The notes under the pieces: generated by a model
What the model was told of the DNA's origin: nothing
The model's database searches: none
Seen by the model: only the letters and a program-made list of their open reading frames with translations
Made by a program: the position numbers and the translations under genes
Shown here: in pieces, positions 36,771-64,000 of the stretch
Numbering within the stretch: the first letter of the stretch is position 1
Layout: each line of letters opens with the position of its first letter
Assembly (NCBI GenBank): GCA_003194525.1
Contig: NBIV01000037.1
Span: 357,286 to 421,285 of the forward strand
Length of the DNA: 64,000 nt
Direction of reading: 5' to 3'
DNA from: Gracilariopsis chorda
Taxonomy: Eukaryota; Rhodophyta; Florideophyceae; Gracilariales; Gracilariaceae

Positions 36771-39700
36771 TCAATCGCTTTCATCCTCCTCACCTATCAG
36801 ACCCTCTGCTCCTATAGGAAACATTGCACCCTCATCGTCATCCTCCTGTTCATAATCTCCATCAGTGTTCATTTCCGCTGGTTTCAGTATATCCTCATCG
36901 TCCTCCTCATCCGACGGGTTCTCACCTTTGGCTTCTTGCATAACTACATCTCTATCGTCAGCTTCATCTCCCCGCTCCTCTTCCCCTCCTCCCACCTCAC
37001 ATAAATCGCCACGGTCCTCTCCATCATTAAAAAAGGGAGGGCGGAAACCGCTTTGCCTATGCACCGCATCCGGGAAATTGTATCTCTCAGGTACAAAGTA
37101 CATATACTATCGCATGCAATAGCCTTTCGATATTGCATCATTGTACCCAGCTCCAGCATGAACTACATCCCCTCTTCCAATGAAAACAGAAAACGGTGGA
37201 ACTTTGAACTTCCGAACCATCATAGAAGCCGAAAGCTCTTTCAAGTTACCCCGTGTCATTGTTAGAGTATGTGACCGTTCACAAACCCAAATCATGAACG
37301 CATCCGGTCCCAATGCCATTGCAAAATACCCTTAGTTCACATTTCTCATCCTGTCATTCTCCGTCAAACCCCTGAAATCCGTGTGTAGCACCTGTCTCAG
37401 ACAATCCTCTCCAGTACGAAGGATACGGCCACCCGTGTGAGGATCATACGTCGTTCCACTTTCAGACAACCCGACAGCCGCTGCAATCTGACCGAGCCTT
37501 GCATCCAACATGGCTCTCTTTCGAGCAAGAACCGCACCGTTTTCAAGCTCCTCAATTCTGTCCGCAATCCCTCGTTTAGTTTTGATGAAACGCCCCACCA
37601 CCTGGATACCATTCTTAGCATCCGTTCCCCTCCTCCATTGATGATCATATTCCAGAAAACACGATTCGCTTCGTTCGTGAGATCCGGTTGCGAAACAACG
37701 TCGCGTTCGAAGAAGTCTATCAGTTCTCCTATCACATCTTCGTCCATTTGCAGTCCCCTCTTCAAAGCCTCACTCGCCATGCCTTCATCTGTCCCGAAAT
37801 TATCCAGCACACAAAACCCTCTCTACGACATCTCTGCTCTCTTCTTGGCAAATTAAACACGAGCCAAGTCCTCTCTCTCAAAAGTGGCCATCCATAACGC
37901 TTTCTATTCATTCGATGCCGTTCCTGATGACCGCATCTTCACTCCCAGCACTGCACGTGTCGTAGTAACCATCTCTTTGTCCATGTTGCGCGACGCACGC
38001 CAGTACAAATCATGATGAACCTTTGGGAAGTCACCAGGTGATAGGCACTCCGCCCGATGGTGCTTCCTCAGATTTATCCTCTGCATCCATGGATGGGAAT
38101 GCTTCACTGCATTACGGCTTGCAGGCCACTCACTGGGCAACGAGTATATCAGGGCAACCCAAGACATGTCCGCTCCCATAGCCAGATCTCCTGGCGTACT
38201 TAAGCCAGCTGGAAGCTTGTCAGGATCCTTATCGTCAAAGCTGCCTGCGGTTTGCTGCTCTTCTGCCTCGTCTTTCTCATCATCGACAAAGTCCTCCTGA
38301 GCTTCATCCTCGCTTGACTCGAGCACAATTATCTCCTGTGCTGTCAACCACCTTTTCAAATCTCTCCTTTCCATACTACGCAGTACCTCCACCACCTCCT
38401 GCGAGATGCCAAAGCCAGGTCGCTTCACACCAGGTGCAGTCGGCTTACGATTCGATCGTCTCTGCCTCTTCACCAGTGGCTCAAAATCAACTGACTCTTC
38501 ATCTTCATCTTCGCCCAGGACCTCCACTTTACGCTTCTTTGAGTTTCTCTTACTTGTTCGAGGCTCCTGGTCAGCGTTTGGAGGCTCCTGAGCAGCTTTT
38601 TCATTCAGACCAAGCAACTCGATCACGTCCACATCGGCCGCAGAGGGAGCAGCAGCAGTAGCATCCTGTCCCTGCATGCCCGACAAAGCGCTGGACAACG
38701 TCCTACGAACCTCTTTCACCTTATTACTCACTCCGGACTCCAGTGAACTGCGGTTTCCTTTCGTATACCACTTCTCCAGACGAGATATGATATACTTTGA
38801 CACAGTCTGGTCAGAATCGCCGATGGTAACCGTGGTATTCATCAATTCCTGTCCATTCTTTTTCTCCTTTATGGAACTCCCCAGGTCACTGCAAATATCA
38901 TACGTTCTAGAAGCGCATTCGAAGAAGTACTTTCGGAAATCCTCAAACGGTCCCATCTTCACAGTGGCTGCCGAACTCACTTGAACATGCGCCTGTAGAC
39001 ATTGGATAGTAAAACGAAACTTATCCCCTGACATTCCAAGAAGAATATCACCAGACACATGAGTGATTCCAGTTTGAGGCGTCTCCTGCCAGATAACATC
39101 GAAGAACTCTAACAGACCGGGACTATGCGAAAACTTCAGAGCAAGAGCAGAATGGCGACTGAAATTACGTATCTTCCCTTCTTTCCCCTTCGTCTCACTG
39201 CTACACAACACCCCCGTGATTTGGCTTGGTTTAGGCTTTGGCAACTCATACCCATCCTGCATTACGCCATTACGAATAAACGAAACAGCAGTGTGAATCT
39301 TATCTGCGGAGTACATCACCAGAACATTGGAGCTCAAATCATTCAACGTCTTCCCCAGCCACAACACCTCATTCAATTTCATACTCTGGCCGTCGTTCCG
39401 TTCGCAAAGCATGACGTTCAAACCAGCAGTAATCCGTGGCCATCTCGAACCATCCTGCTCGAGGTCCAGTAGAACACTCACTCGATGGAAGCCGTCCACC
39501 AAAACCACAGGAACAATCAAACGCCCACTCGCATCAATAGCGTCACTAACCGGCACATCCTCCAACAGGGCCACCGCAATCGACCCAAGAGAAGGGAGCC
39601 ATGCGAATTTCCTCAGTTTGTTCAAAGTATCTCGAAGATGTTTTTTCATTCTTCGAACGAACCATGTTCTTCGGAAATCGAATGTTGTGGATATCGATTA

Positions 39701-40560
39701 CGCAATTGTGCTGGTCATAATCATCTCGGTTGATGTCTAAGACCCCCAAACTGTTATCCACCTCTTCCGAAGGAACAGCATCACCATCATCATATAAAAC
39801 GCTCTCACCCAGATCAAGATGATTCCTGGAGAGTGCAGGCACCTCTGTGACGCCATCACAGGAGCTTGCACCGACTTCAGGGCCTCCTCGTTTTCCAGAG
39901 CCGCCAGCGAGAGCACCTGATGTTCCTCCACCGCTCTGACGGGTTTTCACCGGAGCCTCTCCACTGCTCTCAAGGCTCTTCACCGGCGCTTTGGTCACCA
40001 ACATTCTTGATGGTGTACCAGCAACAGCGGGAAGGCGCTTGAATTATCTTGCAGTGGTCCTGGAAGCTGTAATTCTGTGGACAGTATTCAAATTTGCCCC
40101 TGACTGCGGTGGAACCGACGCATTCCCCTCTCCGCCTTCAATTTTGACACTCATCATCCCAGTGTCCCATGAATATAAAGCCGCTGAAACCATCTCCTTC
40201 AAAGATGCGTGCAGTTCCTCGGGACCCCCGAAAACGTAAGGGTACTTCTCATCTTGGTGTGACGAAATATTTGTCTTAACGATAACCACCAAGTCCTCTC
40301 CAGGTCTCTGCGTAGAGGACAGGGGATGGTTGTGTAAATAACGACATAGTGTCGTCCCGGGCCCCCCAGCAACCCCCACACCGCGCAATTTCGCCTCTCC
40401 TACCTTCAACTTCGCATTACTACTCCCAAATCATATCGAACAGATTGACCTTGGCATCGCCCTTAAGCACCTGACCCGTATTGCCCCCAATTGATGGCTC
40501 AGGGTGGCTGGCAGTTCGGGTGGCACCCCGGCTCTTCGCTCTGCCTCGCATGGTCGGCAT
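36771..40560 (-). pseudogene. Module copy A, gene 1: ParB-like plus 2OG-Fe(II) dioxygenase protein
   Basis: From an ATG at 40560 (MPTMRGRAKS) the protein has four parts. The N-terminal domain carries GEDLVVIVK and YPYVF. A ParB-like domain follows (VIDIHNIRFP near 39690; VLVDGFHRVSVLL near 39490, the DGxHR signature). Then comes a charged linker with nuclear-localisation-like basic clusters and a conserved DMSWVALIYSLPSEWP block. The C-terminal dioxygenase-like domain has RGFCVLDNFGTDEGM near 37800, Fe-binding HTD near 37385 and a distal His in GDVVHAGAGY near 37160, followed by an acidic tail. In-frame stops near 37857, 37817, 37334 and 37107 and a frame change near 39600 break it. The same order of parts occurs in copy B at 60.5-64 kb. 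ParB domains bind palindromic DNA and CTP in bacteria; the role here is unknown. Confidence 0.7.
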
Positions 40561-41050
40561 GTCGATAACACGTCTCTTTGGCGAAACAGGCTTCCTCGTA
40601 GTCCGTTTCCGTCATGGCGCGTTTATCCTATTCCCAGTGAAATCCATGGCTGAGTACTTCAAAGGTCGTGCTTGCGTTTTCTTGGCACCCACTGACGTCG
40701 AATGCTCCCGTGACCACGTATGCTTGGTTCCAAAGAGATGGACGTAAGCACTATATATCATTTTCAAGACGTTTCATGACATCCATTGTCGTCAATGTAG
40801 CATCCCTGCAATTCCCCTCCCAATTACTTGCATTGCAAAAAGAATTTGATAATTATTTGGTCGAGGACCATGGTCCGAGGTGCGTGGTGCTCCATCGGGA
40901 ACACGATGGAGCGCCAGGACGCAAAATGTTAATTAAAATTCATGCCTGGCGCTCCATCGTGCTCGCGATGGAGCACCATGACACCTCGGACCACGGACCT
41001 CGACCCAAAACGAAGAGAAACATAATCCGAAGGAAACGGGTTCATTCAAG
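40561..41050. promoter_or_regulatory. Divergent promoter region of copy A
   Basis: 490 bp lies between the starts of the ParB-dioxygenase gene and the methyltransferase-SET gene. It contains the 143-bp inverted repeat described separately. No other motif was assigned. Confidence 0.5.
40861..41003. repeat. 143-bp inverted repeat with two 24-bp palindromes
   Basis: The arms begin TCGAGG and meet at TTAATTAA (40929-40936). Each arm contains GCTCCATCG, six bases, then CGATGGAGC (40889-40912 and 40951-40974, 62 bp apart). Arms match with a few differences. It lies exactly between two divergent genes, as does the palindrome array in copy B, which suggests operator or ParB-type binding sites rather than a chance fold-back. 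Confidence 0.85.
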
Positions 41051-44000
41051 ATGCACGGAACCGGAGAAGAGCTTATTGATGCTTATCTTGCAGTTCGTAA
41101 TGACTACGCAGCGACGAGGCAAAATGTGGATAAGCCGAGACGTTTGAAGCACACCAACTTTGTGGAGTTCGCGGTACAAAGTCGCAACGTTCATGACTCT
41201 GCCAAGAAAATTTTTCTCACCCTCATCGGACCGGATTACATCTCGTATTCGGACTCCGAGCTCCGTAACATGTCTCGCAGAGGCCCTCCACGTCAACTCT
41301 ATCTTATGGCAAGAATAATGGACGTAAAGACCATGAAGAAGACAGGCGTGTAAGGGACTTTTGGAAGGTTCATTGTAAAAGGAAAAGGCTTAAAAAAATT
41401 CCCTGTAACGTGTTGCTATCTGTCTTTTGTAAGTCCCGTGTTTTGGGATCAACCAAGAAATCTTCCGCTTTCCACTCGGATCCTTGCACCGACTTTTAAA
41501 TGGTCATTGGGTTGTCTATGGTGCAACACAATGCCGTGGATAAGAAAGGAAGTGGTAGGAAAAGGAAAAGGGGCATGGCAGCTAAGAAGTTCTCGAAAGT
41601 GAGTTTGTCGGACAAGACCCAGAGTCAGAGAGTCGGGTATGGTGTGCAGCTGGTGACCAGAGCTTGGGATTGTTTCGCCCAATTCCTCGGGTTTCCTAAC
41701 GTTGAGGTTATGATTTTGCCTTACATTCATCTCGACTATATCAGTGTAGTCTTCACCGATATTGCACAACGCTGCATGGGCTTCCAACACAAAGATTGTT
41801 CCAAACAGTTTGTGGAGGAGAAGAACGTCACCACTGTAGAAGAAAACGTTACCAAATGGGCATGGAATCTGCCGGAGCCAGTGGGTACAGGGCTTCGCCT
41901 TTGTGCCAAAGAATACCTTGGTGACCTTTCTAATGTGGTGGTACAAGAGAAAGTGTTCCACATCTCTGCTCCCAGCAAATGGGATGCCCTCAAAAGGTTC
42001 ATCATCACGAGAATGGGACTTTTCCCTCTGCGGTTTGAGAACTTTAGTGAATCTCTTGTCACTAAGGTTCAAGAGGCCATAAAGCCTCTGAAGCTCATTT
42101 CATTGCATGGAAGCAATGTCAAAGTACATCAAGCAGTGAAACCAGAGCCCGCAGAAGACGTTGACATCATTATGGAGCCAGTAGAAACTGGTACGGCTGG
42201 TGGTGGGAACAAATGTGCTGAGCGTATGGAAGGTGGTAATCAGGGTGAGTTGGAAGAAGTGGAAGAGATAGAGATGGTACATGATACGGAACGTGGCACT
42301 GCGGAACGTGGTAGTGCACCAAAGGCCACTGAAGGACTGCAGACAACAGCTTTGTCGCAGAACTTGTCGTATGATGTCGAAGGCACGGGGATTCGTGCAC
42401 CACCGTACCCTACGACTTTGGATGATGTGATAGCTTACAAATATTGTGAGAAGGAGATGTACCGCAACTTCCGTCTCCACAACTGCAAGTTCAAAATCTC
42501 ATCGAAGTTGACTACAACAAGTCTGGCGAAAGCGAGGTATCTATTGAAGGAAGGGTGCAGTTCCTACTTTCCGATCCGCCATATGGGACTCGTTCTGAGC
42601 GTCGTTTGGAGAACAGCGAACACGATATTCTGACAGAGAAGGGCATGAGCAGGTCAGCGAGGAGGTCTTCAAAGCTTCTACGTCCTGATGGACATATTAT
42701 ACAGTTCGGCTCATGGGATCAGGTACCGTTGTGGCGGGATGTGCTACGGAAAGTTACCTACATGGATGACTCTGATACGATGCGTTAATTTTTTGTCGTC
42801 GACGAACAGCCCCTCCATTTCGTACGGTTTTTAAGTAATACAACGGGTAACGTTGGGGGAAGAAGTTGCCGGTTGCACCAGACGACAGAATACGCTGTAC
42901 ATGCTGTTCGTTCTGGAGTTCCTTATGCATAACAGCACCGGATGGTCAACTATGAAAACTTCAATTATGTTGCTTCACGATACCCAGCTTATCATGCAGT
43001 CATGGATCAGGTGCCGCCGATGTCAAATAGTGAGACGCTCATGTGGTCTGTAAAAAACCCGGATAAGAAGTATACGAGGAGGAGGGTGCGACCGGAAGAG
43101 AAGTGTAGGGCACTGTTGAAAGAGCTGATTTGCAGGTTCAGTCAGCCAGGAGACCTCGTGGTCGACATGTTTGCCGGAACGTTCTCGACAGCGATGGCGT
43201 GCATAGAACTGCCCAAGTATCGGAAGTTTGTGGGGTGTTAACCGGACAAAGCTTGCTTTGAACACGCCAGGCATGCCGCTATTGTTCGCTTCGCTTCCAT
43301 AATACGGGAAGGACACACGGATGTTGAGAAGAGCCAGGAGCTTCGAAAGATGACCCATTGTGTTTCCTCTGCATTCCCAATGGGAAGAAGCAGGCACAGC
43401 GTGTTATGGAGGTCTGTCGACGGGTTTCCACCGTACCAAATTCTTCCCCCACACCTTGTCGACTTTCTCTCCACTTTGTGGCAAAGTGAAATTCTAAGGA
43501 AGTTGGGAAGGAAGAAAGCTATGGATGGATGGCCGAGGGAGCTGCAGGGAAGAATGAATCTGGAGAACATGAAGTCTCTATGGGCAATGGAGGCTGTGCA
43601 ATATGGGTTGCGAGTGGGCAACTCTGCTATTCTTCACGAAAAGGGTGGTGTTGGAGTGTTTGTAACTCGTCGAATTGCTGCAGGCGAGGTAGTGTGCTAT
43701 TTTAACGGGACGTTGGTTTATCATGACCTTTCGAATCGGAAAGAAGTGCAAAAGAACTACGGGGAGGGAGTCATGGGTGTGACGAAGGATCGCTTCCGGA
43801 AGTATGCAGTGGAGATAGAGGTCTACGGTTAACAGTTCCAATCACTTCCGCATCGAAAACAGCTGACGAATTGGCATGGAAAACAAGCAAACCCCATTAT
43901 ATGGGTGGTTCCTTCCCCTTTTTGTATTGCGGGGTATATCAACGATCCAAAGTACGTGGAAGGGGATAAACAGTAAGATGCCATGATGGATGGCCTCGTG

Positions 44001-44147
44001 AAAAGAAGGGAGGCTAATGTGCGAATGAAACGGACACCAGTGGGACGAACACCAGGGGGAATAACGGACTACAAATTTATTAAGATGGAGGCGACAGCCG
44101 ACATAGAGGAAGGAGAGGAACTCTTCGCCAGATACGGTGATTTTTAG
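41051..44147 (+). pseudogene. Module copy A, gene 2: DNA methyltransferase-SET fusion
   Basis: The N-terminal domain starts at 41051 (MHGTGEELIDAYLAV). A long middle region runs 41500-42540. A DNA amino-methyltransferase follows, with motif IV DPPY at 42573-42584 and motif I (DMFAGTFSTAMAC) near 43164. The order IV before I is that of the beta-type N6-adenine/N4-cytosine methylases (N6_N4_Mtase). A SET domain follows directly (GVGVFVTRRIAAGE near 43650, GYINDPKY near 43933 in place of the usual NHSC, and IEEGEELFARYG near 44110). Frame changes near 42550 and stops near 42787 and 43239 break the gene. The linear order is identical in copy B. A combined DNA and histone methylation writer is inferred. 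Both active sites still look plausible in the residues that remain. Confidence 0.75.
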
Positions 44148-44496
44148 TACTGGCCAACCCATTTGAATGTGGAGGATGGAACTATAGTCATTGATTAGTT
44201 TGTTGTTATAAACCTTCGTCCATAGCTTGGCTAAAGGGTGACGTTTATTATTTGAACGGATGTGCAGTCCTAACTTAGCAGAAAATCACTTTTAAGTAAG
44301 GATAGAAGATACAACGCAATATGGATGTGATACAGAAACGTCCATTTTCGGTACCACGGAGGATTGTATTCTCAAGATTTCACAAAAAAACAAAGACGTT
44401 TGTGCGCATTGGGTGGCGAGATTTTCCCGGACAACACACGGCGTGCGCCATCCTAGAGCGTCACTAGCCACTTGTGCAAGATGTTTGACTCCAAGA
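44148..44496. other. Spacer between genes 2 and 3 of copy A
   Basis: About 350 bp with no ORF of note. The two flanking genes are co-oriented. Confidence 0.4.
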
Positions 44497-46851
44497 ATGG
44501 CGCCGAAGGGAAAGAAGCGAGGCCCGGCAAGGGTTCGTGCGGCGAATGCGCTTAAGACGTGGCGAAAGGCTATTGAGGAGCGAACCGCGAGTGGAACGAA
44601 AGCGAATTAATGTGTTCCCAGGAGCGGTTTATCGGTGAGGAGGTCAGAAGAAGGTGCTTCGAAGAGAGGGGGAAGAGTTGGGGCAAAGAACGTCGGATCC
44701 GAGCGCACGACGAGTGAGCGCAAGACAAGTGAGCGCACGAAGAGTGAGAATTTGAAGGCTGATGCCCATGCGCATGTAGCACGCAAGAGAGATTCGTTTC
44801 GGGGAGAGCGATCTATGCCTGGGTCTGGTGGTGGGGTGGAGGGTAAGAAAGGGTCGGTTGCTAGGAGAAGAGAAGAGGTACCAGATCAGGGAGGGTTGAA
44901 AGCAAATGCGCGGGTCGAAGACCGAAATAAATATGAAGAAATGCCAGAAAGGAAACAAATGGAAGAGGCAGTTTCGCTGAAGAGAAGTGGAGCCCCAACG
45001 GGAAATCAATATGGAGGAGAGGTAAATGTCCCTTTAGTACAGAGTGATGGGGATGAAGAGGATCCCATTGTGGAGGGGAGATGGACGAGAGAGAGAATAG
45101 AGGAAGGAGTGGGACGCCACTCTGATTTAAAGGAAACGCGGAAAGTGCAAGAAGTGGTCAGAGCGACTGCTGGAATACAGGAAACATCGAAAAGCAGAGA
45201 ACGTACGAGCACCCCGGTACGGGCGCGAAAGGTGCAAATGGCTCAAGACTTGGAAAGTGATAAAGGAAGCATAACGCCGCGGACTCCAGAAGGAGTGCGA
45301 GAGCGGAAACGAAGTGTTCATCCGTCGCCAAGTGAGCCTGCTGAGGAGCGACGGCTGCCTGTCAATATTTTGGGAGATGCAGGGAATGACGACATCGGTG
45401 TGATATCTCGATCTTCGTTAGTTGAGAGGGTCAATATGTTGAATGCAGAACTCGGGCATGTCCAAGGGGACCAGTGCAGCCTAGAGATGTCACTGAAGCT
45501 GACGCAAGAGGAACTGACGAGGGTGAGAGAAGAGATGAGCGAGAAGAATTTGCTGATAGATAGCTTACGGGAAGGGATGAAGGTGAGACGAGGGGAGAGA
45601 AAGGGATCTGAAGCTGAAAAGGAATTGCGAGGGCGTAGGAAGTATGTGGTTGATGTGCAAGAAGGTTTTTATGGTTTTGCCAGGGTAGTATATGATAGGT
45701 TGTTGTACTATGCAAAGGTGGAGGTATCGGAGCTTTGTTTTACTTCGGAAGGTGTGGAAAGGAACTGGACGGATCGATGCAAATTATTGGGGAAGGGAAA
45801 AGAGGGGAGTATGTTTGTTTTGGGAGGAAAGGAGATTGTACCTCGATGTCCGTTTGAGATTGCGTCTGAGATGAGGTCGTACACGCCTTCTACGGGAGGA
45901 GGAAGTAATGAATTATTGAATTACTTGGTTGGCGTTGAGATTGAGGGGGAGAGATGGGAGTCGATTCGTGAAGCGGGTAGGAAGGATCAATGCGTGCGGG
46001 AGGTTGTTGCGGACAGGTGTTTGAGGCAACGTATGAAGCAGAAGTTGAGTGATCTGATTGGGGTGCGGAAGCGTGCGGCACGGGACAAAATGTTTTCGTT
46101 GCTTAGATATGACTTGATAGCCAGACGTATGAGACCGCGAGAGGGGAGGGAGCTAGACATTGAGTTGAAGAAGCAGTTAGAAAAAGCAAAGACGAAATTC
46201 AAGGGGGATGTGGAGGCAAAGAGCGGTAGTTTATGTTCTTGGAGGATGAAAACAATCGAAGATCTTACGTGTTCTGGATTTCAGGTTGCTGGGCGGCTGA
46301 GAGAGTTTAGTGAAGGGGACATGTACTTCAAGAACGGGGCTGCGGTGGAAGTGTTGGAAGAATTCATGGGATATGAGTTGGGAGCGGAAAGGGAGGGAAA
46401 GATGGAATACGTTGATGGGACAGTGATGCATTTGGCTTGTTTGGATGCGTGGATCGGATGTGTTTTGAGGGCAATGGACACAGATGTAGGGCGTGGAGGA
46501 AGACGGCAGTTGTTATGTTCTACGTTGTACGGTGAGTTTCTTCCGCTCGCGGTAGAGAATATACTTGGTGTGGCGTGGGAGACGGTGAGAGAGCTACATC
46601 ATGAAGAATTGGAGAATGAAGGTTGCGATGAGGGTGACCCGCGTTGTATAGCTGGCAATGTGGATAGAGAAGTGACAATAGCGCTGTGGATACCTTCGAA
46701 GCGGAGGATATACTTGGCCGTGAAGGATGAATACTTTTTGGAACATATGACGAAACGGCTGGGAGGGGTGCTGGACTGTTATGTTGCTGCGTCCAGAAGA
46801 TGTGTGGATCAAGAGGTTGGTGAAAGAGGGTCGAGATGTTGGGAGAGGTGA
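44497..46851 (+). CDS. Module copy A, gene 3: coiled-coil protein of unknown function
   Basis: An ATG at 44497 starts a short basic frame to 44610 (MAPKGKKRGPARV). A 738-codon frame at 44635-46851 follows and needs either a short intron or a frame change to join it. Parts in order: a basic, repetitive low-complexity head (SERKTSERTKSE), a coiled coil about residues 260-315 (LVERVNMLNAELGH to EKNLLIDSLREG), then a conserved globular region of about 400 residues with YYAKVEVSELCF, RMKQKLSD.IGVRKR, MYFKNGAAVEVLEEFMGYE and YVDGTVMHLACLDAWI. Copy B has the same order of blocks at 55952-53456. This is the best preserved frame of either module copy apart from the transposase. I know no family for it. 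Confidence 0.6.
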
Positions 46852-47149
46852 GGCGACGGATCATGTCGAGGCGCAGTGGGAGGAATGCCTGGGAGGTTAT
46901 GAAGAACAAGTTGAAGAAGAATAGTGTTACTGGTGGAACGGGTGGTTTGCTGATGTGTTGTAGATTGTGGGGCGTAAGGATTTGAAGAGGTGTCACGATA
47001 GAATCGGTTGATGTAGAAAGGATGGAAGCCCCAGTGAAGACGAAGAGTGAATGGCGGGGGGGGATAGTTTTATCAAATGACGTGGCCTGCACCTAGAATG
47101 GAGGTGGAAGGAATGAGGCCGAACCAAGGAGATACGTCGTCGTCTATGG

Positions 47150-48290
47150 AAGGTTTGGAGATGGGAACTGGATCGGTGGTGTGTTCCCGCTCGTCATCGG
47201 TTGACCACCGAAGGCCGACGCAGTTGAGGGTGATATCGACATTGTCGCGAGGTGGTACGAGTTCAAGGAATTGTACAAAAGCGAATTCCTTTGTAATGGG
47301 GGTGGAAGAGCTTGAAGAGGGGGAACGCAGTTTGAAGCGAACTAGGGCAATGAGCTTGGAGAACCATACAGTGGGTGTGGACGGAGAGGAGGAGTTGGTT
47401 CCTGCGACAAGGGTATGGGAGAACTTTGGTGATCTGGAAGGTCCGAATGATGGAATGGCGAAGTTGCGCTGGAGGAGAGGGACGGATGGTTCTTGGAAGA
47501 CGAGTTCGTTTCGTTCTTGGTTGTGATTGTGTAGTGTTGGGATGTAACTGCCGACGACGTATGCGGAGTTGACGAAGGTGAGACGAGTTTGACGGAGGTT
47601 GTTGGGTGAGGGATTTAGCTTGAGATATTCGATAGGGAGACGAAGGAATGAAGTGTGGTGTGACCTAGTTGTGAGGTGATTGAGAGCGTGTCTGAGAAGA
47701 AGAGTTCTTGAAGAAATTTTGGACTTGCGTTGGGGGTGGATACAAGGTACTTTGCGGCTGTGAAGATGTCGTAGAAGAAAAGATGTTTTCCGTCACGTAC
47801 GAAGGAGGGTTTTGCGGGGTTGCGGTTGAGTTTGAGATCGAGCATGAGAGGATTGGGAAGGGTCTGCGGAAAGTGGATTCCAGTCTTTGAAGAGATTGGA
47901 GCGGTCTATAGCATGGATGGTTTCTGCATGGGCGGTGGCTCTTCGCTTGGAAGTTTTGGAGTAATGTGATTTGAAGAGGACTTGGCCGTGCTCGGAGATG
48001 CCTGCGTCGTTGAAGTGGAGACCCCCGTATCGGCGTATGTCTTCGACGATGTGGTCGAGGAGATGGTAATTGAGGGTTTCGAGGTGGGAGGAGTGGTAGG
48101 GTCCGAGAATGGACGCGGCTGTGACTTGGAAGGATCTGATGTGTTATTCGAGAGATAGGAGGGAGGTGTCTGTCCATTCGGGGGAGGAGTTGTATCGTAT
48201 AGCGGAGAGAAGGAGGTATGTGTACTTGGTGAGGACAGAAGTGATGGGGGAGGAGTCGGTTTCTTTGCAGCATCTCGTCTGTGTTTTCGG
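47150..48290 (-). pseudogene. Module copy A, gene 4: truncated KDZ/Plavaka-like transposase and companion ORF
   Basis: On the minus strand the frame opens abruptly at RCCKETDSSPITSVLTKY near 48275 and carries the transposase C-terminus (LNYHLLDHIVEDIRRYGG, FNDAGISEHGQVLFKSHY, then TSKRRATAHAE). It has a TAA near 48155. The companion ORF follows from 47800 (HLFFYDIFTAAKYL, later FAIPSFGPSRSPKFSH). Both match the complete copy B ORFs at 52.1-53.2 kb. Homology stops at about 48290, so at least 500 N-terminal residues are missing. Confidence 0.75.
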
Positions 48291-48294
48291 AATG

Positions 48295-48577
48295 CTAGTT
48301 TGAGTGCTAGTTTTTCTAGTTTGGGGGTGCTAGAAAGCCTATGGTGGGCGTTCAAAAAAATCTCAGAATGTTTTTGCTAGTATATCTAGCACAAAATACT
48401 AGCTCAAATGAATGCAGAGGTGAATGTGAGAAAACTAGCAACATTCATACTCTCAGTAAGAAACTAGCATTCTATCGTTCAGTTCTCATTCATACTAGAG
48501 CGTAAATACTACGAACAGTGAAGGGGTGAATGTTTGTCATCTAGTGCCAGATCATTCACCATCGGCGATGAAATCTA
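48295..48577. repeat. CTAG-rich cluster at the copy A breakpoint
   Basis: Twelve CTAG words occur in about 280 bp, many as ACTAGC or GCTAG, including GCTAGTATATCTAGC at 48376. This begins exactly where homology to the transposase ends. It may be a decayed tandem repeat or element terminus. Confidence 0.6.
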
Positions 48578-48655
48578 GCAGACATGGACGTTTCGGATGC
48601 GGTACTCATTCACTTTTACCTCGTCTAATGGATGTAATCTTGAATCTATACTACG

Positions 48656-52553: not shown

Positions 52554-52568
52554 GCTCGAAGATATTCC

Positions 52569-53402: not shown

Positions 53403-53455
53403 TCAAATTTAGAAACACAGACCCGCTAACTCTAGCAATAAACTTCTTAAACTTC

Positions 53456-55952: not shown

Positions 55953-56436
55953 CCGTAAATAGGCGGTATTGAACCAAACCGCGGTATCGGGAGGCGGAAA
56001 GTAGAAGTTATACCAGGTTGGAGACAAAGGAAAGGATTTACTTCGAAAGTGACTTCGCGGGATGAGGCGAAAGAGCCAGAAGATGTATAAACTGTGTCAT
56101 CCGAAGCCCGACAAAAATGGATTTTTGAATATCCCTCCATGAACGACGATCTACCCAAAAACCTATGCAAAAATGGAGTATTTGGAAACCCTCATCCATA
56201 TCTTTCACGATTCGTTTCCACACACTCCCTCAAATCCTTAACGACATGTATACATATGTTATCCTGTTCCTCTTTCTTTCTATTAATTCACTTGAACTAA
56301 ATGCCATTTAGCACCTCTATCCCATTTCACAATTGACAGCTTTAACAACGAATAAGACAGGAACCAGGATGTCGAGAATAACAGAACAGAAGTTTACTCA
56401 AAATAGTGCTTCACAAGTAACACAGGTAAGAAGAGT
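55953..56436. other. Spacer between genes 2 and 3 of copy B
   Basis: About 480 bp with no convincing ORF. It corresponds to the spacer 44148-44496 of copy A, though the sequences are not obviously similar. Confidence 0.4.
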
Positions 56437-59400
56437 TCAAGCCGTGCTTCTAAAAACGTTGTCATTCCCGTAACGAAGAAACAACTCTTCTCCTTCCTTT
56501 ATATCGCGTATTGCTCTCGCAGATAGCAGAGTGTATTCCATAATTCTTTGCTGCGATAACGTAGAGCTCACCGGACGTATCTGAGCATTCGCCTTTCTTC
56601 GTATGTTGGGTTCATCTTCTGCTAAGTCTTTCTCCTCGTCTCCGTCCAGGTAGCGGGGATCATTAATATAGCCTGCCATACAAAAAGGTGCAGGAACAAT
56701 CCATATCCTGGCTTTCTTCGTTCCTCCATTGTAGTTAGGCAGAGTTTCAAAACCAATGCCGCTACCTACCACTTCCATGGGGAACTTGTTGAAACGCGAA
56801 ACAGTAGCTCCCATGAGCCTTTCCCCATACGTAACATGTTGTTGGGGACGTTGACTAATGTCATGATACACAATAGTCCCATAGAAGTGACAAACAGCCT
56901 CTCCTTCTGCGAAATATCGTGCACTAAAGACTCCGAGCCCGCTAGATGGGTGATTCACTGAAGACTTCGCCACAACGCACCAGTAACTTGATGCATCTAC
57001 ACCACGCAACAACTCTGGCTCTAACTCGTTCAGCTTTGCCTGAGTGCTTTGCGGCCACAGATGTAAAGCCTTAGTACGATACTTGCCGATAAGATCCATA
57101 TCACACCATAAAGTCGATAGAAAAGCCATTATATGGAAAAGAAACCTTTGATACTGCGGGAAATCCTTCGGTGCTGTCCATTGCATTCCTCTGGATCTCT
57201 TCCTGAACACCGTGGCCACATGAAGTGCCACCTGTACAACAGCATTCGTACGGATGCGTTCATCACATTCCAAGTCACCGACTTTGAGGGAATTGTCGGC
57301 AATTAACTTTCCCATGTGCACTCTACCGTTATGCTTCGCGTGTATGAAACAATAACGATACTTCTCACCGCCGATTAACTTTCTGTGCGGAACAAGTTCC
57401 ATGCACGCGAGTGCTGTGGTAAACGTTCCTGAGAAGAAATCCATGACAAGGTCTCCAGGTTGAGAAAAACGTGCTATGAGCTCTTTCATCAACTATCTCG
57501 ACTTCTGCTCCGGGCGAATCTGACGATTTACAAATCATTGCCCATCCCGCACCTTCCAGTACAGTCTCTCTCCTGGGGCATGATTGGGAACCTGATCGAT
57601 TACTCCGACATGTCCAGGGTATCGGCTGTCAACATGGTTGAACTTACGGTAGTTCACCATTGTCTTCCGCTCCGCATAGGGAATGCCATTCCGAACCGCA
57701 TGCACTACTTGCTCCCCTGCGGGAACAAGCTAATGTTGTTGCGACGAGGGAACGCCATCGGGTTTGAGCGATGGCGCAAACACAACAGGGACGTCTTATC
57801 CACGGTGAAAGACTTCTTCATCCTCCCGTCTGCATCAACGTATTGGCAGTCGGTCAAAATCTTGTACCATATCAGGACTGAAAACCTGAACAGAAGACGA
57901 ACAAGGGTCCGCCAGGACGCAGGCAATCCGAGTTGTGATCGGCAAACGAAACCATCTTCTGGTGACTGATGCGATCGTATTCGGTATCCCGAATTTGATA
58001 CGGCGCGTCAGATATAGAGAGCTGAACTCTCCCCTCGGAGATATGGTGCCTCCCGGAACACGTTCATGAACGTCCACCAGCTCTTCGGAGTCCACGCAGT
58101 AGAACGCAAAGTTCTTGTCCATCACGGACTCCAGAATCTTCATAACCTTCGCAGTCACAGGCCCCAACGTCCCATGAGGAGGGAGGATGTTCACCAAAAC
58201 GTCCACCGTTGCCTGTATCTCCGCAGCAGTGGGAGCAGTAGGCGTGGCAATTACGTAATCACTGCTACTACCGCTTTCACCCGTCTGTCCGCAGCCATTG
58301 GAGCTCTCACAGAGCTGCTTTCCAATGGCCTGCACGCCCTTCGTGTGGCTCTTGGTTCCAGGAGCGGCGGATGGTTTGGAATGTACATCCGTAGGGCGCG
58401 ACAAAGCTTTGCTGGGTTGAACATTATGCTTTGCAAAAGCTTCCTTCACTGATTTGACAGTATCTTCGGACAAGGAGTCAAATTGAACTGGTGGGTTCGT
58501 GATGCTTCGCGTAAACGTAGATAGCACTGGCCATTGCTCGGTTTCACTCAGCTCATACATCTTCTTGTCCAGTACAATACGCAGAAGATCCGAGACGAAT
58601 TCTCTGGCCAGAATACGCATATTGCGGTCTACGTCATCCGAAAAAGCAATAGCCCAGGGCACAACATTGTCCTCGGATACCGCCGGCTTCATTTCTTGTC
58701 CCAGCTTGTACGCAGCGGTTTTGGGGCTGTAACCAATCGTTTGGGAGTGAATATCAGAGAGCTTTAAAGTGTCTCTGTTGATAAGGAGATAAGGAAGCAT
58801 CATCTGCTCGCAGTCTCTGAAACCCAAAACGACAGCTAACGCGTCCCAAGCCCTGCATACGTGCTGTACGCCGTACGCCATACGCTGACCGTGCATGCGA
58901 TTAGACATGGTGAAACTTTCCACGTACTTCACTGCCTTCACCTTCTTTCCGTGTCCGAGGCGTCGCTTCCGTTCCCGACCCGTGCGTTCAATCTCGATGT
59001 GCTTTACCACCGACAAGTACAGCAGCTGTTGGAATCGAGTAGCAGGAACGGTCTTAAACCTTCCCTTTCCCTTCCCTGTAGTGGCTCCGCGAAATTACCT
59101 CTTGAAGATGTCAATGTTGAACACCCTTTGTACCATCCCTGTTCCACCTCCGCGCCTCCCGTCAATGGTCCACTCGTAAAAGTCCCGTAAACGCCTGTCT
59201 TTCGACCCCTCTTGTTTATCGAACAATGCCACATATCGATAAACCTGTCGGAAGTACTGCGTCGGACCCTGTACAGAGGTGCAAAGATAAGCAGTGACAT
59301 CTTCGTCGCTGTAGGAGGTGTGGGAGGAACCAAGGAATCTTTCCAACAATCCGAACACTTCTGAATTCGCTCGACGATTCTGTAGCATAAACTCTACAAA

Positions 59401-59598
59401 CTTCTCGAATGTGACATCGCCTTTAGGGACCCCGGAGCCTCTCGATTCCGCGTACGCATCACGGACGGACATAAACACATTCCAGATGGTTGTGAAGCTT
59501 TCCGAAATGCTCATGTCTGAGGGCGGGTGCGCAGGAGCCCTATGCCCTATCACGGGTGCACCTGAGGTACTCCCCTGTTTAGTGGAGGGGAACGACAT
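56437..59598 (-). pseudogene. Module copy B, gene 2: DNA methyltransferase-SET fusion
   Basis: From an ATG at 59598 (MSFPSTKQGS) the N-terminal domain runs to 59095. A 393-codon frame follows to 57835 (RMAYGVQHVCRAWDAL near its start), which needs an intron or frame change at about 59096. At the place of the methylase motif IV this copy reads LADPCSSS instead of DPPY, so catalysis is lost. Further on, after stops near 57770, 57740, 57531 and 57492, an unbroken 351-codon frame carries motif I (DFFSGTFTTALACMEL near 57430) and a whole SET domain (GLGVFSARYFAEGE near 56945, GYINDPRY near 56670, IKEGEELFLRYG near 56480). The SET half is intact while the methylase half is broken. Confidence 0.75.
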
Positions 59599-60516
59599 GG
59601 GTGGAATTTTGGCGGGAGATGCACAGATGCACGAAAGATTGCGTTCGAGTTTGAATGGTTGCGAAGGAGATGCTTCGTGGCAACCGAGGAACGAAAACGC
59701 CCGTTCTGATGGTTCACGTCCCTCGAACTTCGAATAGATTTGATTTCGAAGTGTGTAATGGAGCACGGAGGGAAACTTCGGAGGGTTTTGTTTGGAATGA
59801 GGGAGTTGGGCAGTGCAGAATAGACGGAGAAGGTGAAACTTCGAGAATTCGTCGCAGTTCTCACAGTTCAGGTTGTCGGTGTAACGTCGCAGCTGCGCCG
59901 GGTGAATGGTCTTGACATTGTCGGTCGACAATGTCAAGCACGGACACCAGAATGTTGATTTTTGGTTAAACAAGGGGGGGTCGTTCTTGACATTGTCGAC
60001 CGACAATGTCAAGCACGGACACCAGAATGTTGATTTTTGATTAAATTACGGGGGGTCGTTCTTGACATTGTCGACCGACAATGTCAAGACCGACCACCCG
60101 GCGCAGCTGCGCCGGCCTGGGGGTCAGTGCCAGTAATGAAGCGTTGACGCGTGGCAGGGGGGGAGTTAGAGAAGAGGTGGAAAGGGCGACCGGAATGCTT
60201 CCTCCGCAAAGAACTGTGAGCGAACTCACCGAATCCACTTCTTCGTGCCACCTTAGCACCTGGTACGACTGAAAGGACGCAAAGAGAACCTCTGCCTACC
60301 CTCAGGGTTGAATTCAGCTGTTAGCACGCGCTGATTTTCGCGACCGTCTGCACCAGATTACGCGATTCTGTGTCGCTTATCGAAAGGTCGCTTATCGATA
60401 TGTTTCCCATCATGGTGCGCAAGACTGCAAATGCGGACAACAGGCGGCACACTAGGAGGTCTACCAGAACCAGTGCCTCTGTGCGGAAAGCGAGGGCAAC
60501 ACCGTCCGATAGCGCA
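59599..60516. promoter_or_regulatory. Divergent promoter region of copy B
   Basis: About 0.9 kb lies between the starts of the methyltransferase-SET gene and the ParB-dioxygenase gene. It holds the palindrome array at 59889-60113. No TATA box was assigned. Confidence 0.5.
59889..60113. repeat. Array of three 28-bp perfect palindromes with exact 75-bp period
   Basis: CTTGACATTGTCG, two bases, then its reverse complement occurs at 59911-59938, 59986-60013 and 60061-60088. The central dinucleotide is GT in the first and AC in the others. The spacers share CACGGACACCAGAATGTTGA. The whole array is enclosed by inverted GGCGCAGCTGCGCC-type arms, so it is symmetrical about 60000. The layout resembles an iterated operator or a partition site and stands upstream of a gene for a ParB-like protein. 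Confidence 0.9.
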
Positions 60517-63500
60517 ATGCCAACAACGCGCAGCGGCACAAAGCAGCCCAGTGACCCATCCTGGGGGCCGAACCCAAGCAAGAAGGTGACCCTGGTCGTC
60601 CGTCTACCGAATGGGGAGAAGACGAGCGTGGGGACTGCCTTTGTCGAAGGTGATTCCGGTGCTGGTGGGCACTTGGTGAGGACGCTGCATGGGCACGAAC
60701 TGACGGGGAAGCCGACAGAGGACCTTGTCGTCATATGGAAGGTGCTCATTGAGGATGGCCAAGATATGCAGTACCCGTATCAGTTCAAGACGAGTGACAG
60801 CGTGCCGAACACTCTGGGAGATATGGAGAGCCACGCTTTCTACTGCTGGGACGTGAACATGATGCAACCTTCTCGTGGCGGAGCCTCCACTCCCTGCACT
60901 CCCGCTGCGAAACCGTCTTCCGCCCAGACTCCCGCTGCGACGAAGAATCCGTCCACCAAGAAGTTGAAGCAGAAAACCGCAAGAAAGGCGAAGGCGAAGA
61001 AGTTGACGCAATTGGTGAGCTTGAGTGACGACGAAGGTGATGAAATACACAAGGGTGCGTTGCACTCCAATTTGAAGACGACCACCTCCACCGGAAAGGC
61101 GAAGGTGGTCAGACTGAGCGATCCGAAGAAAGGAAACAGCGCGAATCCCATTGTCACTCCGGCGAAGCCTCCACTAAACCCGGGAGCCAGCAGTGGGGGA
61201 GGTGCGTCGCAGTTACAGACAGCGCAGACTGCCGTTTCTGCCCCCCCGAAATCCTTAACAATTGCTGAAGGAACTGCTGGCAACGCAAGTGATGCAGGCA
61301 GTGGTGGTCAGAGTCAATTGGCGTATCAGACCCAAGTTGCAGAAGCAATTATGGAGGCAGGAAACAGCGCACCGATGGAGGTTGTATTCCCAGAGCAACC
61401 TGGTGGGAAGGAAGAAGGAAGTGATGATGATGAGGTGCAGTTCGTGGGTTCGAAAGCATTGGCTTCAGAGGCCAAAGTTGACTTGTTCGATAAGGGAGAT
61501 GAGCTACCTCCTGATGATGTCGACGACAGTATGCTGGATATTTCGTTTGATATGAACGACTACACATACCATACGTATGTTGTCGATATTGACCTCATTA
61601 AGCCTCCGGATGACGGTGTGCGAGAACTAGACCTCACCCACAAGAACGAAGTAGAGCAGCAAATAGAGCTCTACGAAATCTTGGGGTCCGTTGGGAATCT
61701 GAGTTTCACATTTATCGGTACGAAGAAGCCGGGACATGACTGGTTTGAAGGGAACCGAATTGTGGTAGAATGTACTTGGTTGACGGGTTACACCGCTTGA
61801 ATGTTTACCTCGACCAGAAGAAAACGAATGAAAAACTTCAGGATGTCTGCCACCGGCTCAGTGTAATCGTTTTGGAGAAGACATGATGGGCTGCAAATGA
61901 CCATGTCTCAAGTGATTTCGATTGGAAACGCGCTGAATGATACGGTTGCTGCGGCTAGAGTGATGTCATTTCGAGACAAACTCTACTCCATTCATTCGTT
62001 TATGAAAACGATTGAAAAGGAGACGAAGGTGGACTTCAAGAAAGTCACGCGCACAATGCTACGTGGTGCAATGTTGAAGTGCAAGGTGATAGGGACTTCA
62101 TACCCCAAAACATGTTGCGGTTTGTGGACATGGGTTTGAGAATGTTCACCGACGAAGACTTCATGTCGAGAATGAGGGAAATGTGCTTCAAGTACCCGGA
62201 GCTGGGGATTAAGCACTTTTCCAGTGACAGGTTCTTCAATCTGAAGGGGGACAGGATGAAATTTGCGTTGGAAGCCTTACAGGAACACTATGACGTGCGA
62301 AGAGCATCAAAAGGGACTGCTATGGGCAGGTTTCAGGACATGAGGTTGCATTTCTTCAGATGTTGTGAGCAAGCTTACAAACTATTTGAAGAAGTGGCGA
62401 AGACGTAGAACATAGGGCTTCACATCGTGTTCAAAACTGAGGTTTTGATAGGGTCCTTGGTTTGTTCCTGTTCGAAATTATGTTGCCAGAAACACCGCAC
62501 GCCTGGAGAGGGCGGCCACTCCTGCCATGTGGGAAGAAAACATATCGAAGAGGCTAACGAATCTGAAGATGAGACTAGGAACGACGTTCCGTAAGGACTT
62601 TCAAAAGCCAAATCCAAGTCCGTCCCTCCCGCACCTGTACCTGTTCCGACGACACAGGGGAAAAGCGCAGTTCAGGTAGTAATTCGAGCTTGCCCGCGAG
62701 GGCGAGTAAGAAGAAGGCTCTGGCCACTTGAAAGACGGAATTGCAACGGGATGGTTTCTGCGGGATCTACGCTGGGAAGAGAAGAGAAAGGTCCGGAAAA
62801 CAAAGAAACCGGCAGAGGAAGACTCGGAAGACGAAGAGGACGCTGAGGAGCTGGTGTTTGAAATCGGTGGACGCCGATGCGAAAAGGCAGAGAACCGATG
62901 ATGTTCCTGACTTCGTCATCAACATTCTGAAGCAGAAGCGAGGACGTGAACTATGCCACTTCTTAAGAAAGAATAAGCTACTGCTTTTCAGTGACGACGA
63001 GGGGGGAGAAGATGAAGACAGGAACGATCCAAACAAGAAGAAGTTTGATGATGAAGTGCCTCAGATTCTTCCAGAAGGATTGGTCAAGGCCGAGGAGGAT
63101 ACCAATGTGGGGGACTTGAGCTGGCTCAAGTATGTGAGCATGTTGCCCAGCAGGTGGCCCACCGCAACTGCAGATGGTGTTAAGGGCATGTACGCGTGGA
63201 TGGACAGGATACATCTTCCCAAGGAGCACCGTTGCCATTTGCTTGGGCCGAACGACATGAGGGGTGTTCATCACGCAGTTTTCTGGCATGGTGCGTTCCA
63301 GGAGCTTTTGAGCGAATGGAATAGGGAAAGGAAAGCGTCTGAAGAAGCAGCGCCGGTTCTCAGCGATGCGGAAGCGAACAGTCTCTGGGAGCGGGCGGTG
63401 GAGGAGGACTACTACGCCATGGTGTACTTTGCGAAGAAGACAAGCGAGTTGAAAGAGCGAGGATTTTGTGTGCTGGAAGGTTTCGGAACGGATGAAGGAA

Positions 63501-64000
63501 TGAGGAGCAGGCTCCATGCCATGAGTGACTTGATGGATGGTGATGTGAGTGAGAAGCTGCTTGGATTCTTCGAGGAGTATTTCAATCGCCAACAAGATCT
63601 TCGAGAAGCAGAGAATCAAGAGTTCTGGAACCCCATTTTCAATGCTGGGGAGGCAGCTGATGAAGCAGACAGACTGTCTGGGTCTACGAGGTATATGACT
63701 ACACGGAGAGGAATCGCGGATGAAATGGAAAGAACGACGGAGAATCACTGGGTGGAAGAGGCGGGCGTTGTTGGATGCACGTATGGGTCAGATCTGTGTA
63801 TGCCTAGGATTGGAAGATAACCGAGTGGCGGTGCATAAGATGTTTGCGCCAAAGACTGGGGGTAGAGTGTTGTGTACTGGACGCGGCTGTCCCAGACAGA
63901 AGCTACATACGGACTTTCAGACGCTGACGATCCCGGAGAAACTGAACGAAAAGAATCCGGGGTACTTTATGATAGCCTCTGGCAAGTATTCGTTTCCATT
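60517..64000 (+). pseudogene. Module copy B, gene 1: ParB-like plus 2OG-Fe(II) dioxygenase protein, runs off the window
   Basis: The ATG at 60517 (MPTTRSGTKQ) matches the start chosen in copy A; the frame is open further upstream. Parts in order: the N-terminal domain (KVTLVVRLPNGEK, EDLVVIWK, YPYQF), a long Ala/Lys/Ser-rich linker, ParB-like residues (YVVDIDLIKPP near 61580), a one-base frame change just before VDGLHRLNVYLD (61774-61809), a conserved alpha-helical part to 62408, a second linker, LSWLKYVSMLPSRWP near 63120, and the dioxygenase domain (ERGFCVLEGFGTDEGM near 63455). A second frame change near 63755 leads to the Fe-binding HTD at 63906-63914. The distal His lies beyond the window. 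Confidence 0.7.

What the first reader, a model, noticed from the sequence alone, without database searches (positions are those of the whole stretch)
36771..64000. One four-gene module present twice in opposite orientations: a candidate large DNA transposon with epigenetic cargo
Seen in the sequence: ParB-dioxygenase, methyltransferase-SET, coiled-coil protein and KDZ/Plavaka-like transposase occur in this order at 36.8-48.3 kb and as an inverted copy at 50.3-64 kb, with the same relative directions (1 and 2 divergent, 2 and 3 co-oriented, 3 and 4 convergent). Protein-level similarity is moderate and nucleotide-level similarity largely lost, so the two copies are old and distinct subfamilies, and shared order is not a recent duplication artefact. 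Known: some fungal KDZ transposons are linked to TET/JBP dioxygenases. Inference: this is a related element class with a different toolkit, combining a DNA methylase, a SET domain, a ParB-like protein and a 2OG dioxygenase.
Basis: partly seen in the sequence, partly recalled or inferred. Interest (0 to 1): 0.92.

Follow-up and report, generated by a model that had tools for sequence, protein, structure and literature searches.

The report
Algal jumping genes carrying chromatin writers
The window holds two members of a large, repeated family of jumping genes, one inserted inside the other, that carry their own DNA- and histone-modifying enzyme genes in what looks like a red seaweed genome, and that show a strange strand bias on either side of a central palindrome.

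Summary
In detail: four genes occur twice, inverted, in one order. The window is a nested insertion: an old element (34,978 onward) is broken at 48,275, inside its transposase gene, by a second element of another subfamily that starts at 48,276 and runs off the contig. In this 91-Mb genome (very probably a red alga) the module is a high-copy DNA transposon family: of 113 methylase-SET loci 79 have the coiled-coil gene in the expected place; the 23-bp end sequence has 239 matches against 1 control; all 10 end pairs read (of 22 seen) have an exact 2-bp target duplication. The transposase is Plavaka, not KDZ. Between subfamilies all four genes show purifying selection (dN/dS 0.13-0.36 in 7 comparisons; 4 others weaker or saturated). 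One subfamily is 99.4-99.8% identical across 8 loci. A second element class shares the methylase-SET, 2OG-like and membrane genes without detected Plavaka. The ParB and 2OG labels rest on motifs; both fold predictions failed. Unexpected: in the best copy GC skew runs from about -0.45 to +0.6, crossing zero beside a long palindrome, and decayed copies do not mutate that way. That hints at a replication or excision phase of its own.

The parts
34978..48275 (.). Element 1 (family B), ParB-side end on the left; interrupted at 48,275 by element 2, its transposase-side end lies off the contig
   Evidence: End repeat at 34,978; segments of 68-77% DNA identity to the C31 element up to exactly 48,275
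34978..35005 (+). Element 1 ParB-side terminal inverted repeat (decayed, 6 of 28 differ from the C31 transposase-side end)
   Evidence: homologous to the C204 end (L066)
35210..35258 (.). Subterminal palindrome (arms 23, 2 mismatches)
36771..40430 (-). Element 1 gene A: ParB-like motif plus 2OG-dioxygenase-like motif (pseudogene)
   Evidence: motifs only, no Pfam match
40859..41005 (.). Element 1 central palindrome with four TGGYGCTYCATC half-sites
   Evidence: 5 matches in the window against 0.05 expected; 4 are here, 1 at 5,192
41048..44201 (+). Element 1 gene B: amino-methyltransferase (DPPY) fused to SET (with stops)
44611..46851 (+). Element 1 gene C: coiled-coil protein, open frame of 746 aa
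47073..48275 (-). Element 1 gene D: C-terminal part of a Plavaka-type transposase, cut by element 2
   Evidence: 77% DNA identity to C31 over 45,386-48,275
48276..64000 (.). Element 2 (family A), transposase-side end on the left; runs off the contig end
   Evidence: end repeat; contig C37 is 421,285 bases, so it ends at window 64,000
48276..48303 (+). Element 2 transposase-side terminal inverted repeat CGTCTGTGTTTTCGGAATGCTAGTTTGA
   Evidence: 1 mismatch to the C31 end
49179..49644 (+). Subterminal repeats of about 119 bp in element 2
50289..53402 (+). Element 2 gene D: Plavaka transposase (one frame, with a stop after 52,550)
   Evidence: PF18759, E 2.6e-20
53456..55970 (-). Element 2 gene C: coiled-coil protein (broken frames; right limit approximate)
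56437..59604 (-). Element 2 gene B: methyltransferase (motif IV DPCS instead of DPPY) fused to SET (right limit approximate)
59888..60115 (.). Element 2 central hub: tandem 75-bp units with the palindrome TTGACATTGTCG..CGACAATGTCAA
60403..64000 (+). Element 2 gene A: ParB-like/2OG-like gene, frame broken, cut by the contig end

Best explanation
Shown: these are two members of a large family of terminal-inverted-repeat DNA transposons with a Plavaka (CACTA-like) transposase and a 2-bp target duplication. The longest copy with both ends read is 13.8 kb, about 18 kb is extrapolated for the C31 type, and many shorter deletion forms exist. Element 2 inserted into the transposase gene of element 1. 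The elements carry a fused amino-methyltransferase-SET protein, a coiled-coil protein, a ParB/2OG-like protein and a membrane-like protein; the first three and the transposase were maintained by selection between subfamilies. Inferred: the transposase cuts and pastes the element; the methylase-SET protein writes a base methyl mark (most likely N6-methyladenine) and a histone-lysine mark on element chromatin, with the coiled-coil or zinc-finger partner for targeting and the 2OG-like enzyme as possible eraser, so that the element sets its own chromatin state in a host without a detected C5-cytosine methylase. Subfamilies with a lost methylase motif IV would keep only the SET and SAM-binding roles.
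For: Collinearity: 79 of 113 methylase-SET loci have the coiled-coil gene downstream on the same strand, with 0 wrong-strand and 0 wrong-side cases; 82 of 126 coiled-coil loci have convergent Plavaka. Ends: 239 matches to the 23-bp end with at most 2 mismatches, against 1 for the control; 22 convergent pairs among the places listed there, all 22 joining one transposase-side and one ParB-side end; exact 2-bp duplication in 10 of the 10 pairs read, in none extending to 3 bp. Nesting: homology stops at 48,275 and the end repeat starts at 48,276. Recent activity: 8 loci at 99.4-99.8% over 3.4-4 kb. Selection: dN/dS 0.13-0.36 in 7 comparisons of C31 with element 1, element 2 (transposase) and L033, covering all four genes; 0.65-0.99 in 3 comparisons among family-B copies, ParB gene only. 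Enzymes: profile matches, over short stretches, to DpnA, RsrI, MboIIA, CcrM and to KMT2C/EZH2/SETD8. No C5 methylase match in the genome and no CpG excess of C-to-T changes.
Against: No complete long element with a target duplication was read: the one long copy with both ends seen (C6, 13.8 kb) has no matching 2 bp. The 10 duplications come from elements of 5.65-11.85 kb; 6 of those 10 hold methylase-SET and coiled-coil matches, in 4 of the 6 (C12, C32, C64, C144) shortened and abutting through an internal deletion, and none holds a ParB match (C109 holds part of the 2OG-like region). DPPY is lost in family A (window, L009) and family C. The SET motif reads IND in 16 of the 23 relatives my expression caught, instead of the usual NH. 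Two fold predictions failed at pLDDT about 35. 29 of 113 loci had none of the three neighbours in the capped lists. No modification data were available. Between C31 and element 2, four further comparisons are saturated or weaker: pN/pS 0.48-0.53 in three, dN/dS 0.47 in one; dS exceeds 1 in most of the seven good ones.
Confidence: 0.78

Rival explanations
1. A mobile replicon: the element also replicates outside the chromosome, from the central palindrome between the divergent ParB and methylase genes. ParB-like protein binds the palindromes, the methylase times or marks replication, and the transposase only integrates the molecule. (Compatible with the best explanation as to what the element is.)
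For: GC skew of the plus strand runs from about -0.45 at the left to +0.62 at the right of the C31 element, sets in at its left end repeat and crosses zero beside the palindrome; at third codon positions the sign follows position in all 8 C31 frames, and the transposase (C31 and element 2) runs against the rule of the other genes. Cumulative minima lie about 300-630 bp from the palindromes in three families. Decayed copies mutate symmetrically. Half-sites occur only at the centre within element 1 and C31. The core genes also occur in elements without detected Plavaka.
Against: No polymerase or helicase gene seen. Skew grows towards the ends, whereas a fixed origin would give a step; resection of 3' ends or selection on composition could also do it. 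The separation of position from gene strand rests on the transposase gene and one frame not shown to be a gene (c31 19,043-19,579); C-rich codon use of that transposase is an alternative. At the left of element 1 the skew is not bounded by the end: the flank reads -0.32 and -0.22 at 34.2-34.7 kb, the first 250 bp inside -0.01. One nearly complete and two partial elements were examined. The control stretch of 34 kb also holds a palindrome with arms of 22. ParB fold unconfirmed.
Confidence: 0.13
2. Endogenous virus or virus-derived giant repeat.
For: Large size, membrane-like protein, methylase, repeated intact copies.
Against: Scans of viral contigs gave no relative or only partial matches of 22-50% identity to the methylase region, as did phage records; end repeats with 2-bp duplication and Plavaka; no capsid-like match in Pfam scans of 10 C31 frames.
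Confidence: 0.04
3. Segmental duplication of an ordinary host gene cluster.
For: Two copies lie side by side in the window.
Against: More than 100 loci on many contigs, exact ends, target duplications, neutral decay of copies.
Confidence: 0.01
4. The cargo acts on host or rival elements (genome-wide anti-silencing or counter-defence) and not on the element itself; motif-IV-dead families act as inhibitors.
For: DPPY replaced by DPCS (family A) or by DAPT, DAPA, DALT (family C) in families that spread; several subfamilies share one genome.
Against: No functional data; short forms without ParB still spread, which trans-complementation explains equally.
Confidence: 0.12

Closest known systems
Plavaka transposons of fungi (PlavakaA/B; Kojima 2025, PMC12730594: abstract, section 3.2.2 and passages read)
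   Same: PF18759 transposase; 2-bp target duplication; some PlavakaB families carry a chromatin-related cargo gene (TET/JBP)
   Different: Ends CGTCGG..CCGACG, not TGT..ACA or CATCA..TGATG; cargo is methylase-SET plus ParB/2OG-like plus membrane-like protein; host very probably a red alga
KDZ transposons with TET/JBP (same paper)
   Same: DNA transposon with a dioxygenase(-like) gene
   Different: No KDZ match found; 2-bp, not 8-bp, duplication; no TET/JBP Pfam match
HarbingerS/MuDR of Phytophthora with SET (named in the introduction of PMC12730594, passage read)
   Same: Transposon-encoded SET domain
   Different: Other transposase; the passage seen does not mention a fusion to a DNA methylase
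DNMT-carrying retrotransposons of dinoflagellates and charophytes (PMC5890265, abstract read)
   Same: Transposon encodes its own DNA methylase
   Different: C5-cytosine enzyme in retrotransposons; here an amino-methyltransferase with SET in a DNA transposon
Bdelloid rotifer N4CMT (PMC8885841, passages read)
   Same: Bacterial beta-type amino-methyltransferase joined to a chromatin domain, in genomes without C5 methylases
   Different: Host gene with a chromodomain reader; here mobile, with a SET writer
Plavaka giant repeats of Amoebidium (PMC11244446, passages read)
   Same: Giant repeats flanked by Plavaka, with red-algal hits
   Different: Tandem clusters with tyrosine recombinases up to 50 kb; no methylase-SET mentioned in the passages seen

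Membership tests
Plavaka superfamily | Plavaka transposase domain PF18759 | tested here: met
   2.6e-20 and 2.7e-21; 119 matches at E up to 0.01 genome-wide
Plavaka superfamily | 2- or 3-bp target duplication | tested here: met
   10 of 10 pairs exact 2 bp; the C6 pair has none
PlavakaA / PlavakaB | Termini TGT..ACA or CATCA..TGATG | tested here: not met
   Termini CGTCGG..CCGACG in all 10 pairs; so not filed under A or B
KDZ | KDZ transposase PF18758 | tested here: inconclusive
   0 matches, but the control also rang nowhere; the window transposase matches only PF18759
KDZ | 8-bp target duplication (stated for Zisupton) | tested here: not met
   figure from PMC12730594
TET/JBP-bearing transposon | TET/JBP dioxygenase domain | tested here: not met
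   No Pfam match in the 2OG-like region at E up to 10; a distant relation is not excluded
2OG-Fe(II) dioxygenase | HxD...H motif and double-stranded beta-helix fold | tested here: inconclusive
   Motif conserved; model pLDDT 35, no PDB relative. Motif rule recalled
ParB/Srx | ParB fold | tested here: inconclusive
   Motif VDGxHR only (recalled); model failed, no Pfam or PDB match
Beta-class amino-methyltransferase (N6A/N4C) | Motif IV (DPPY) before motif I (FxGxF), PF01555 match | tested here: met
   DPPY lost in families A and C. Class rule recalled
SET methyltransferase | PF00856 with NH and Y catalytic residues | tested here: inconclusive
   PF00856 above cut-off (element 2, C31, P0013), below it in element 1; IND instead of NH. 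Residue rule recalled
Starship (fungal giant transposons) | Tyrosine-recombinase captain | not tested
   Considered only; the definition is recalled

The most novel reading that the evidence does not exclude
A eukaryotic mobile replicon: a conserved core (ParB-like/2OG-like gene, amino-methyltransferase-SET gene and membrane-protein gene placed around a central palindromic hub) that replicates extrachromosomally, gains a strong symmetric GC skew there, and has been paired with different integration machineries (Plavaka in one class, an unidentified one with an OrsD zinc-finger protein in the other).
Probability: 0.12. Interest if true: 0.95.

Novelty: new variant of a known kind. Interest (0 to 1): 0.8.

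Why it matters
Transposons that carry a SET domain or a 5mC-directed enzyme are known. I found no description of one protein that joins an amino-methyltransferase to a SET domain inside a DNA transposon: searches (1 paper, listing only, a review of fungal metabolism; 0; 0); the library lacks most subscription papers. The host genome shows no C5-cytosine methylase match and no CpG decay, so this is a natural case for asking whether 6mA or 4mC marks transposon chromatin in a eukaryote, a point that PMC8885841 (passage) calls controversial for forms beyond 5mC and 6mA. The skew about a central palindrome also needs an explanation and can be tested.

Tried and rejected
Segmental duplication: rejected by copy number, ends and target duplications. 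Fungal KDZ: rejected on transposase and duplication length. Viral origin: two scans of viral contigs gave nothing or only partial matches to the methylase region (73 loci); phage records likewise (51 records, none with 80% of the query in one place). Structure predictions of the ParB-2OG protein and of the 2OG-like part were too poor to use, so no fold search was run. Profile searches of solved structures with the ParB/2OG and coiled-coil alignments gave nothing meaningful. Guessing the right end of the C53 element at 102.6-103.9 kb failed; the pattern search later placed it at 97,085. Five of six guessed transposase-side ends in family B held no end or homology. RIP/CpG decay was tested and not seen. 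The exact host species was not established. The rest of element 1 beyond element 2 was not located.

Rows dropped before counts: I entered the tables by coordinates: 118 of 118 methylase rows (merged to 113), 130 of 134 coiled-coil rows (merged to 126; 4 overlapping fragment rows left out), 59 of 59 Plavaka rows, 66 of 84 ParB rows (18 fragment rows left out). In one search the coiled-coil rows were pre-merged to 126 and the 119 rows. In one search the 48 rows were pre-merged to 40. All these tables are lower bounds because only best candidates are scored.
Full report
WHAT IS IN THE WINDOW. The four genes are there, twice, in the order and directions given. The window lies at the end of contig C37 of a 91.3-Mb genome in 1,081 contigs. 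Pfam supports three parts: Plavaka transposase (2.6e-20), N6_N4_Mtase (4.5e-8) and SET (1.6e-6). The ParB and dioxygenase labels have no library support and rest on motifs: VDGFHR/VDGYHR, and HTD...GDVFHAG...RYH, near-invariant in 11 aligned sequences.

NESTED INSERTION. The C31 copy (L061 and L062, contiguous) aligns with window 45,386-48,275 at 77%; the match stops exactly there, and window 48,276-48,303 matches the C31 terminal repeat in the other orientation. Three further loci (C53, C27, C386) start at the same base with different flanks. The second element therefore sits inside the transposase gene of the first. Among 83 coiled-coil/Plavaka neighbour pairs, 82 are convergent; the one same-strand pair is this junction. 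The skew also flips here, from +0.56 just left of the junction to -0.43 by 48,776-49,025.

A TRANSPOSON FAMILY. Searches of the own genome gave 118, 84, 134 and 59 matches for methylase-SET, ParB part, coiled-coil and transposase, and 119 for PF18759. Of 113 merged methylase-SET loci, 79 have the coiled-coil gene downstream on the same strand, 32 a listed transposase convergent to it, 29 the ParB gene upstream and divergent, 29 none of the three; no gene was on the wrong side, and one transposase was on the wrong strand. All four were listed at 6 loci (C230, C263, C31, C332, C46, C550). The end CGTCGGTGTTYTCGGAATGCTAG occurs 239 times with at most 2 mismatches; the reversed control once (only the first places are listed). 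In that list I count 22 convergent pairs of 5.65-11.85 kb, each with one T-type and one C-type end. I read 10 of the 22: all 10 have an exact 2-bp duplication, none longer. By the hit coordinates, 6 of these 10 (C12, C32, C53, C64, C144, C187) enclose methylase-SET and coiled-coil matches; in C12, C32, C64 and C144 both are shortened and abut. None of the 10 holds a ParB match; C109 holds part of the 2OG-like region. Against this: the longer C6 element (13.8 kb, both ends read) has no matching duplication, and no full 18-kb copy was read end to end; that figure is extrapolated from C31 and the C204 end.

ACTIVITY AND SELECTION. Eight loci of the C31 family are 99.4-99.8% identical over 3.4-4 kb. 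Between families dN/dS is 0.13-0.36 in 7 comparisons: C31 against element 1 (coiled-coil, methylase part, SET part, methylase N part, ParB part), element 2 (transposase) and L033 (ParB-2OG). Four further comparisons with element 2 are saturated or weaker (pN/pS 0.48, 0.53, 0.53; dN/dS 0.47). Among family-B copies, ParB gene only, it is 0.80, 0.99 and 0.65; in family A, methylase N part, 0.54. This is what cargo kept by selection in the mobile lineage looks like, shown for decay in one gene only.

THE ENZYMES. A profile of 20 sequences matches DpnA, RsrI, MboIIA and CcrM (annotated as adenine enzymes or, for RsrI and CcrM, so recalled) and, over short stretches, SET domains of KMT2C/D, EZH2 and SETD8. 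Motif IV is DPPY in element 1 and the C31 family and DPCS in family A (element 2 and L009); in family C it is DAPT in three of five loci, DAPA and DALT in the others. Of 41 relatives, 37 matched my expression, 35 of them with DPPY or DPPF. So not every family can be expected to methylate. The SET motif is IND in 16 of 23 relatives matched. Named relatives are red algal: Chondrus crispus and Pyropia vietnamensis for methylase-SET (2 named of 41 relatives), Gracilaria domingensis for the ParB/2OG query (1 relative). Two relatives, P0003 (methylase-SET) and P0046 (coiled-coil), both come from a source contig listed at 7,972 bp, which suggests linkage in another genome. The genome holds light-harvesting proteins (15 matches). 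I infer a red alga; the species is unknown.

HOST BACKGROUND. No C5-cytosine methylase match was found, while the control rang in 10 of 14 genomes. In 27 aligned copies C-to-T changes are no commoner at CpG (0.296 and 0.307 on the two strands) than elsewhere (0.264-0.317). The 2OG-like enzyme is therefore unlikely to serve against 5mC.

A SECOND ELEMENT CLASS. Of the 113 methylase-SET loci, 22 have an OrsD/C2H2 protein (PF12013, 1.7e-8) downstream on the same strand, none upstream. By inspection, ten of these contigs (C58, C353, C117, C138, C172, C176, C263, C379, C539, C378) also carry the 2OG-like gene upstream and divergent, and seven of them (C58, C353, C117, C138, C172, C176, C379) weak membrane-protein matches (about 20-24% identity) further out. 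No PF18759 match lies beside them. A core is thus shared between two element classes.

A FIFTH GENE. A membrane-like protein (417-aa frame; membrane character judged by eye, no Pfam match above cut-off) lies between the 2OG part and the ParB-side end of C31 and gives 137 matches; it is present in many short forms, for example C7, C14, C15, C66, C109, C210, C340 and C669.

THE SKEW. In C31 the plus-strand GC skew is -0.39 to -0.51 from the left end over 6 kb, near zero at the centre, and +0.62 in the last window; the left flank is 0 to -0.14. At third codon positions: transposase (+ strand) -0.70, coiled-coil (-) -0.51, SET and methylase parts (-) -0.19 and -0.11, ParB (+) +0.36, 2OG-like (+) +0.47, membrane-like (+) +0.44, last frame (-) +0.61, all in plus-strand sense; two retrotransposon frames in the window are near 0. 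Most genes alone would fit G-rich coding strands; the transposase (C31 and element 2) and the last frame, which is not shown to be a gene, are what separates position from strand. Cumulative minima at C31 12,070, window 41,303 and 59,483 lie about 300-630 bp from the central palindromes. C31 has a perfect 76-bp palindrome; element 1 has two palindromes with the half-site TGGYGCTYCATC, found elsewhere in the window only at 5,192, and in the C31 stretch only at the centre; element 2 has a different palindrome in 75-bp units. A scan of 30 ParB loci found a palindrome upstream of ParB in 20 and none in 10; the 34-kb control stretch also gave three, the longest with arms of 22. In 27 family-B copies singleton substitutions are strand-symmetric (per 1000: C-to-T 12.96, G-to-A 12.52; C-to-G 8.87, G-to-C 8.29; A-to-G 11.1, T-to-C 9.91), so mutation in the chromosome does not seem to make the skew. 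The left border of element 1 is not sharp: the flank at 34.2-34.7 kb reads -0.32 and -0.22. The skew may come from an extrachromosomal phase, from exposure of 3' ends after excision, from codon use, or from selection; this is unresolved. Three elements of three families were examined, two of them clearly incomplete.

LITERATURE. Kojima 2025 (PMC12730594; abstract, one section, passages) gives PlavakaA/B termini and duplications, TET cargo, and SET in HarbingerS/MuDR. Amoebidium (PMC11244446; passages) has Plavaka giant repeats with red-algal hits. PMC5890265 (abstract) and PMC8885841 (passages) give the nearest methylase precedents. Searches for the combination, or for skew in such transposons, listed nothing that I judged to describe it from titles and abstract starts.

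VERDICT. A real, recently active transposon family with a new epigenetic toolkit, seen here as one element inside another; the cargo's action is inferred, and the skewed, palindrome-centred layout is the most open and most novel point.

Noticed in passing
window 34978-64000; L061/L062: Strong GC skew along the elements, changing sign beside a central palindrome; in the transposase gene it runs against the coding-strand bias of the other genes.
   Followed up: partly
L018, L020, L021, L023, L030 and contigs C58, C353, C172, C379: Second element class with the same methylase-SET (motif IV lost), on several contigs also the 2OG-like and membrane-like genes, but an OrsD zinc-finger protein and no detected Plavaka.
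   Followed up: partly
L062:7683-8934: Conserved membrane-like protein as a fifth element gene, present in many short forms (137 matches).
   Followed up: partly
window 2842-11688: Gypsy chromovirus-type LTR retrotransposon (repeats 99% identical over 300 bp; RT, RNase H, integrase, chromodomain).
   Followed up: no
window 25559-25858 and 33154-33453: Another pair of 300-bp direct repeats (94%) spaced 7.6 kb, perhaps an older LTR element.
   Followed up: no
window 35210-35258 and L066: Near-perfect subterminal palindrome next to the ParB-side end in element 1, with a homologous stretch in the C204 element.
   Followed up: no
window 49179-49644: Three diverged copies of a repeat of about 119 bp between the element 2 end and its transposase gene.
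   Followed up: no
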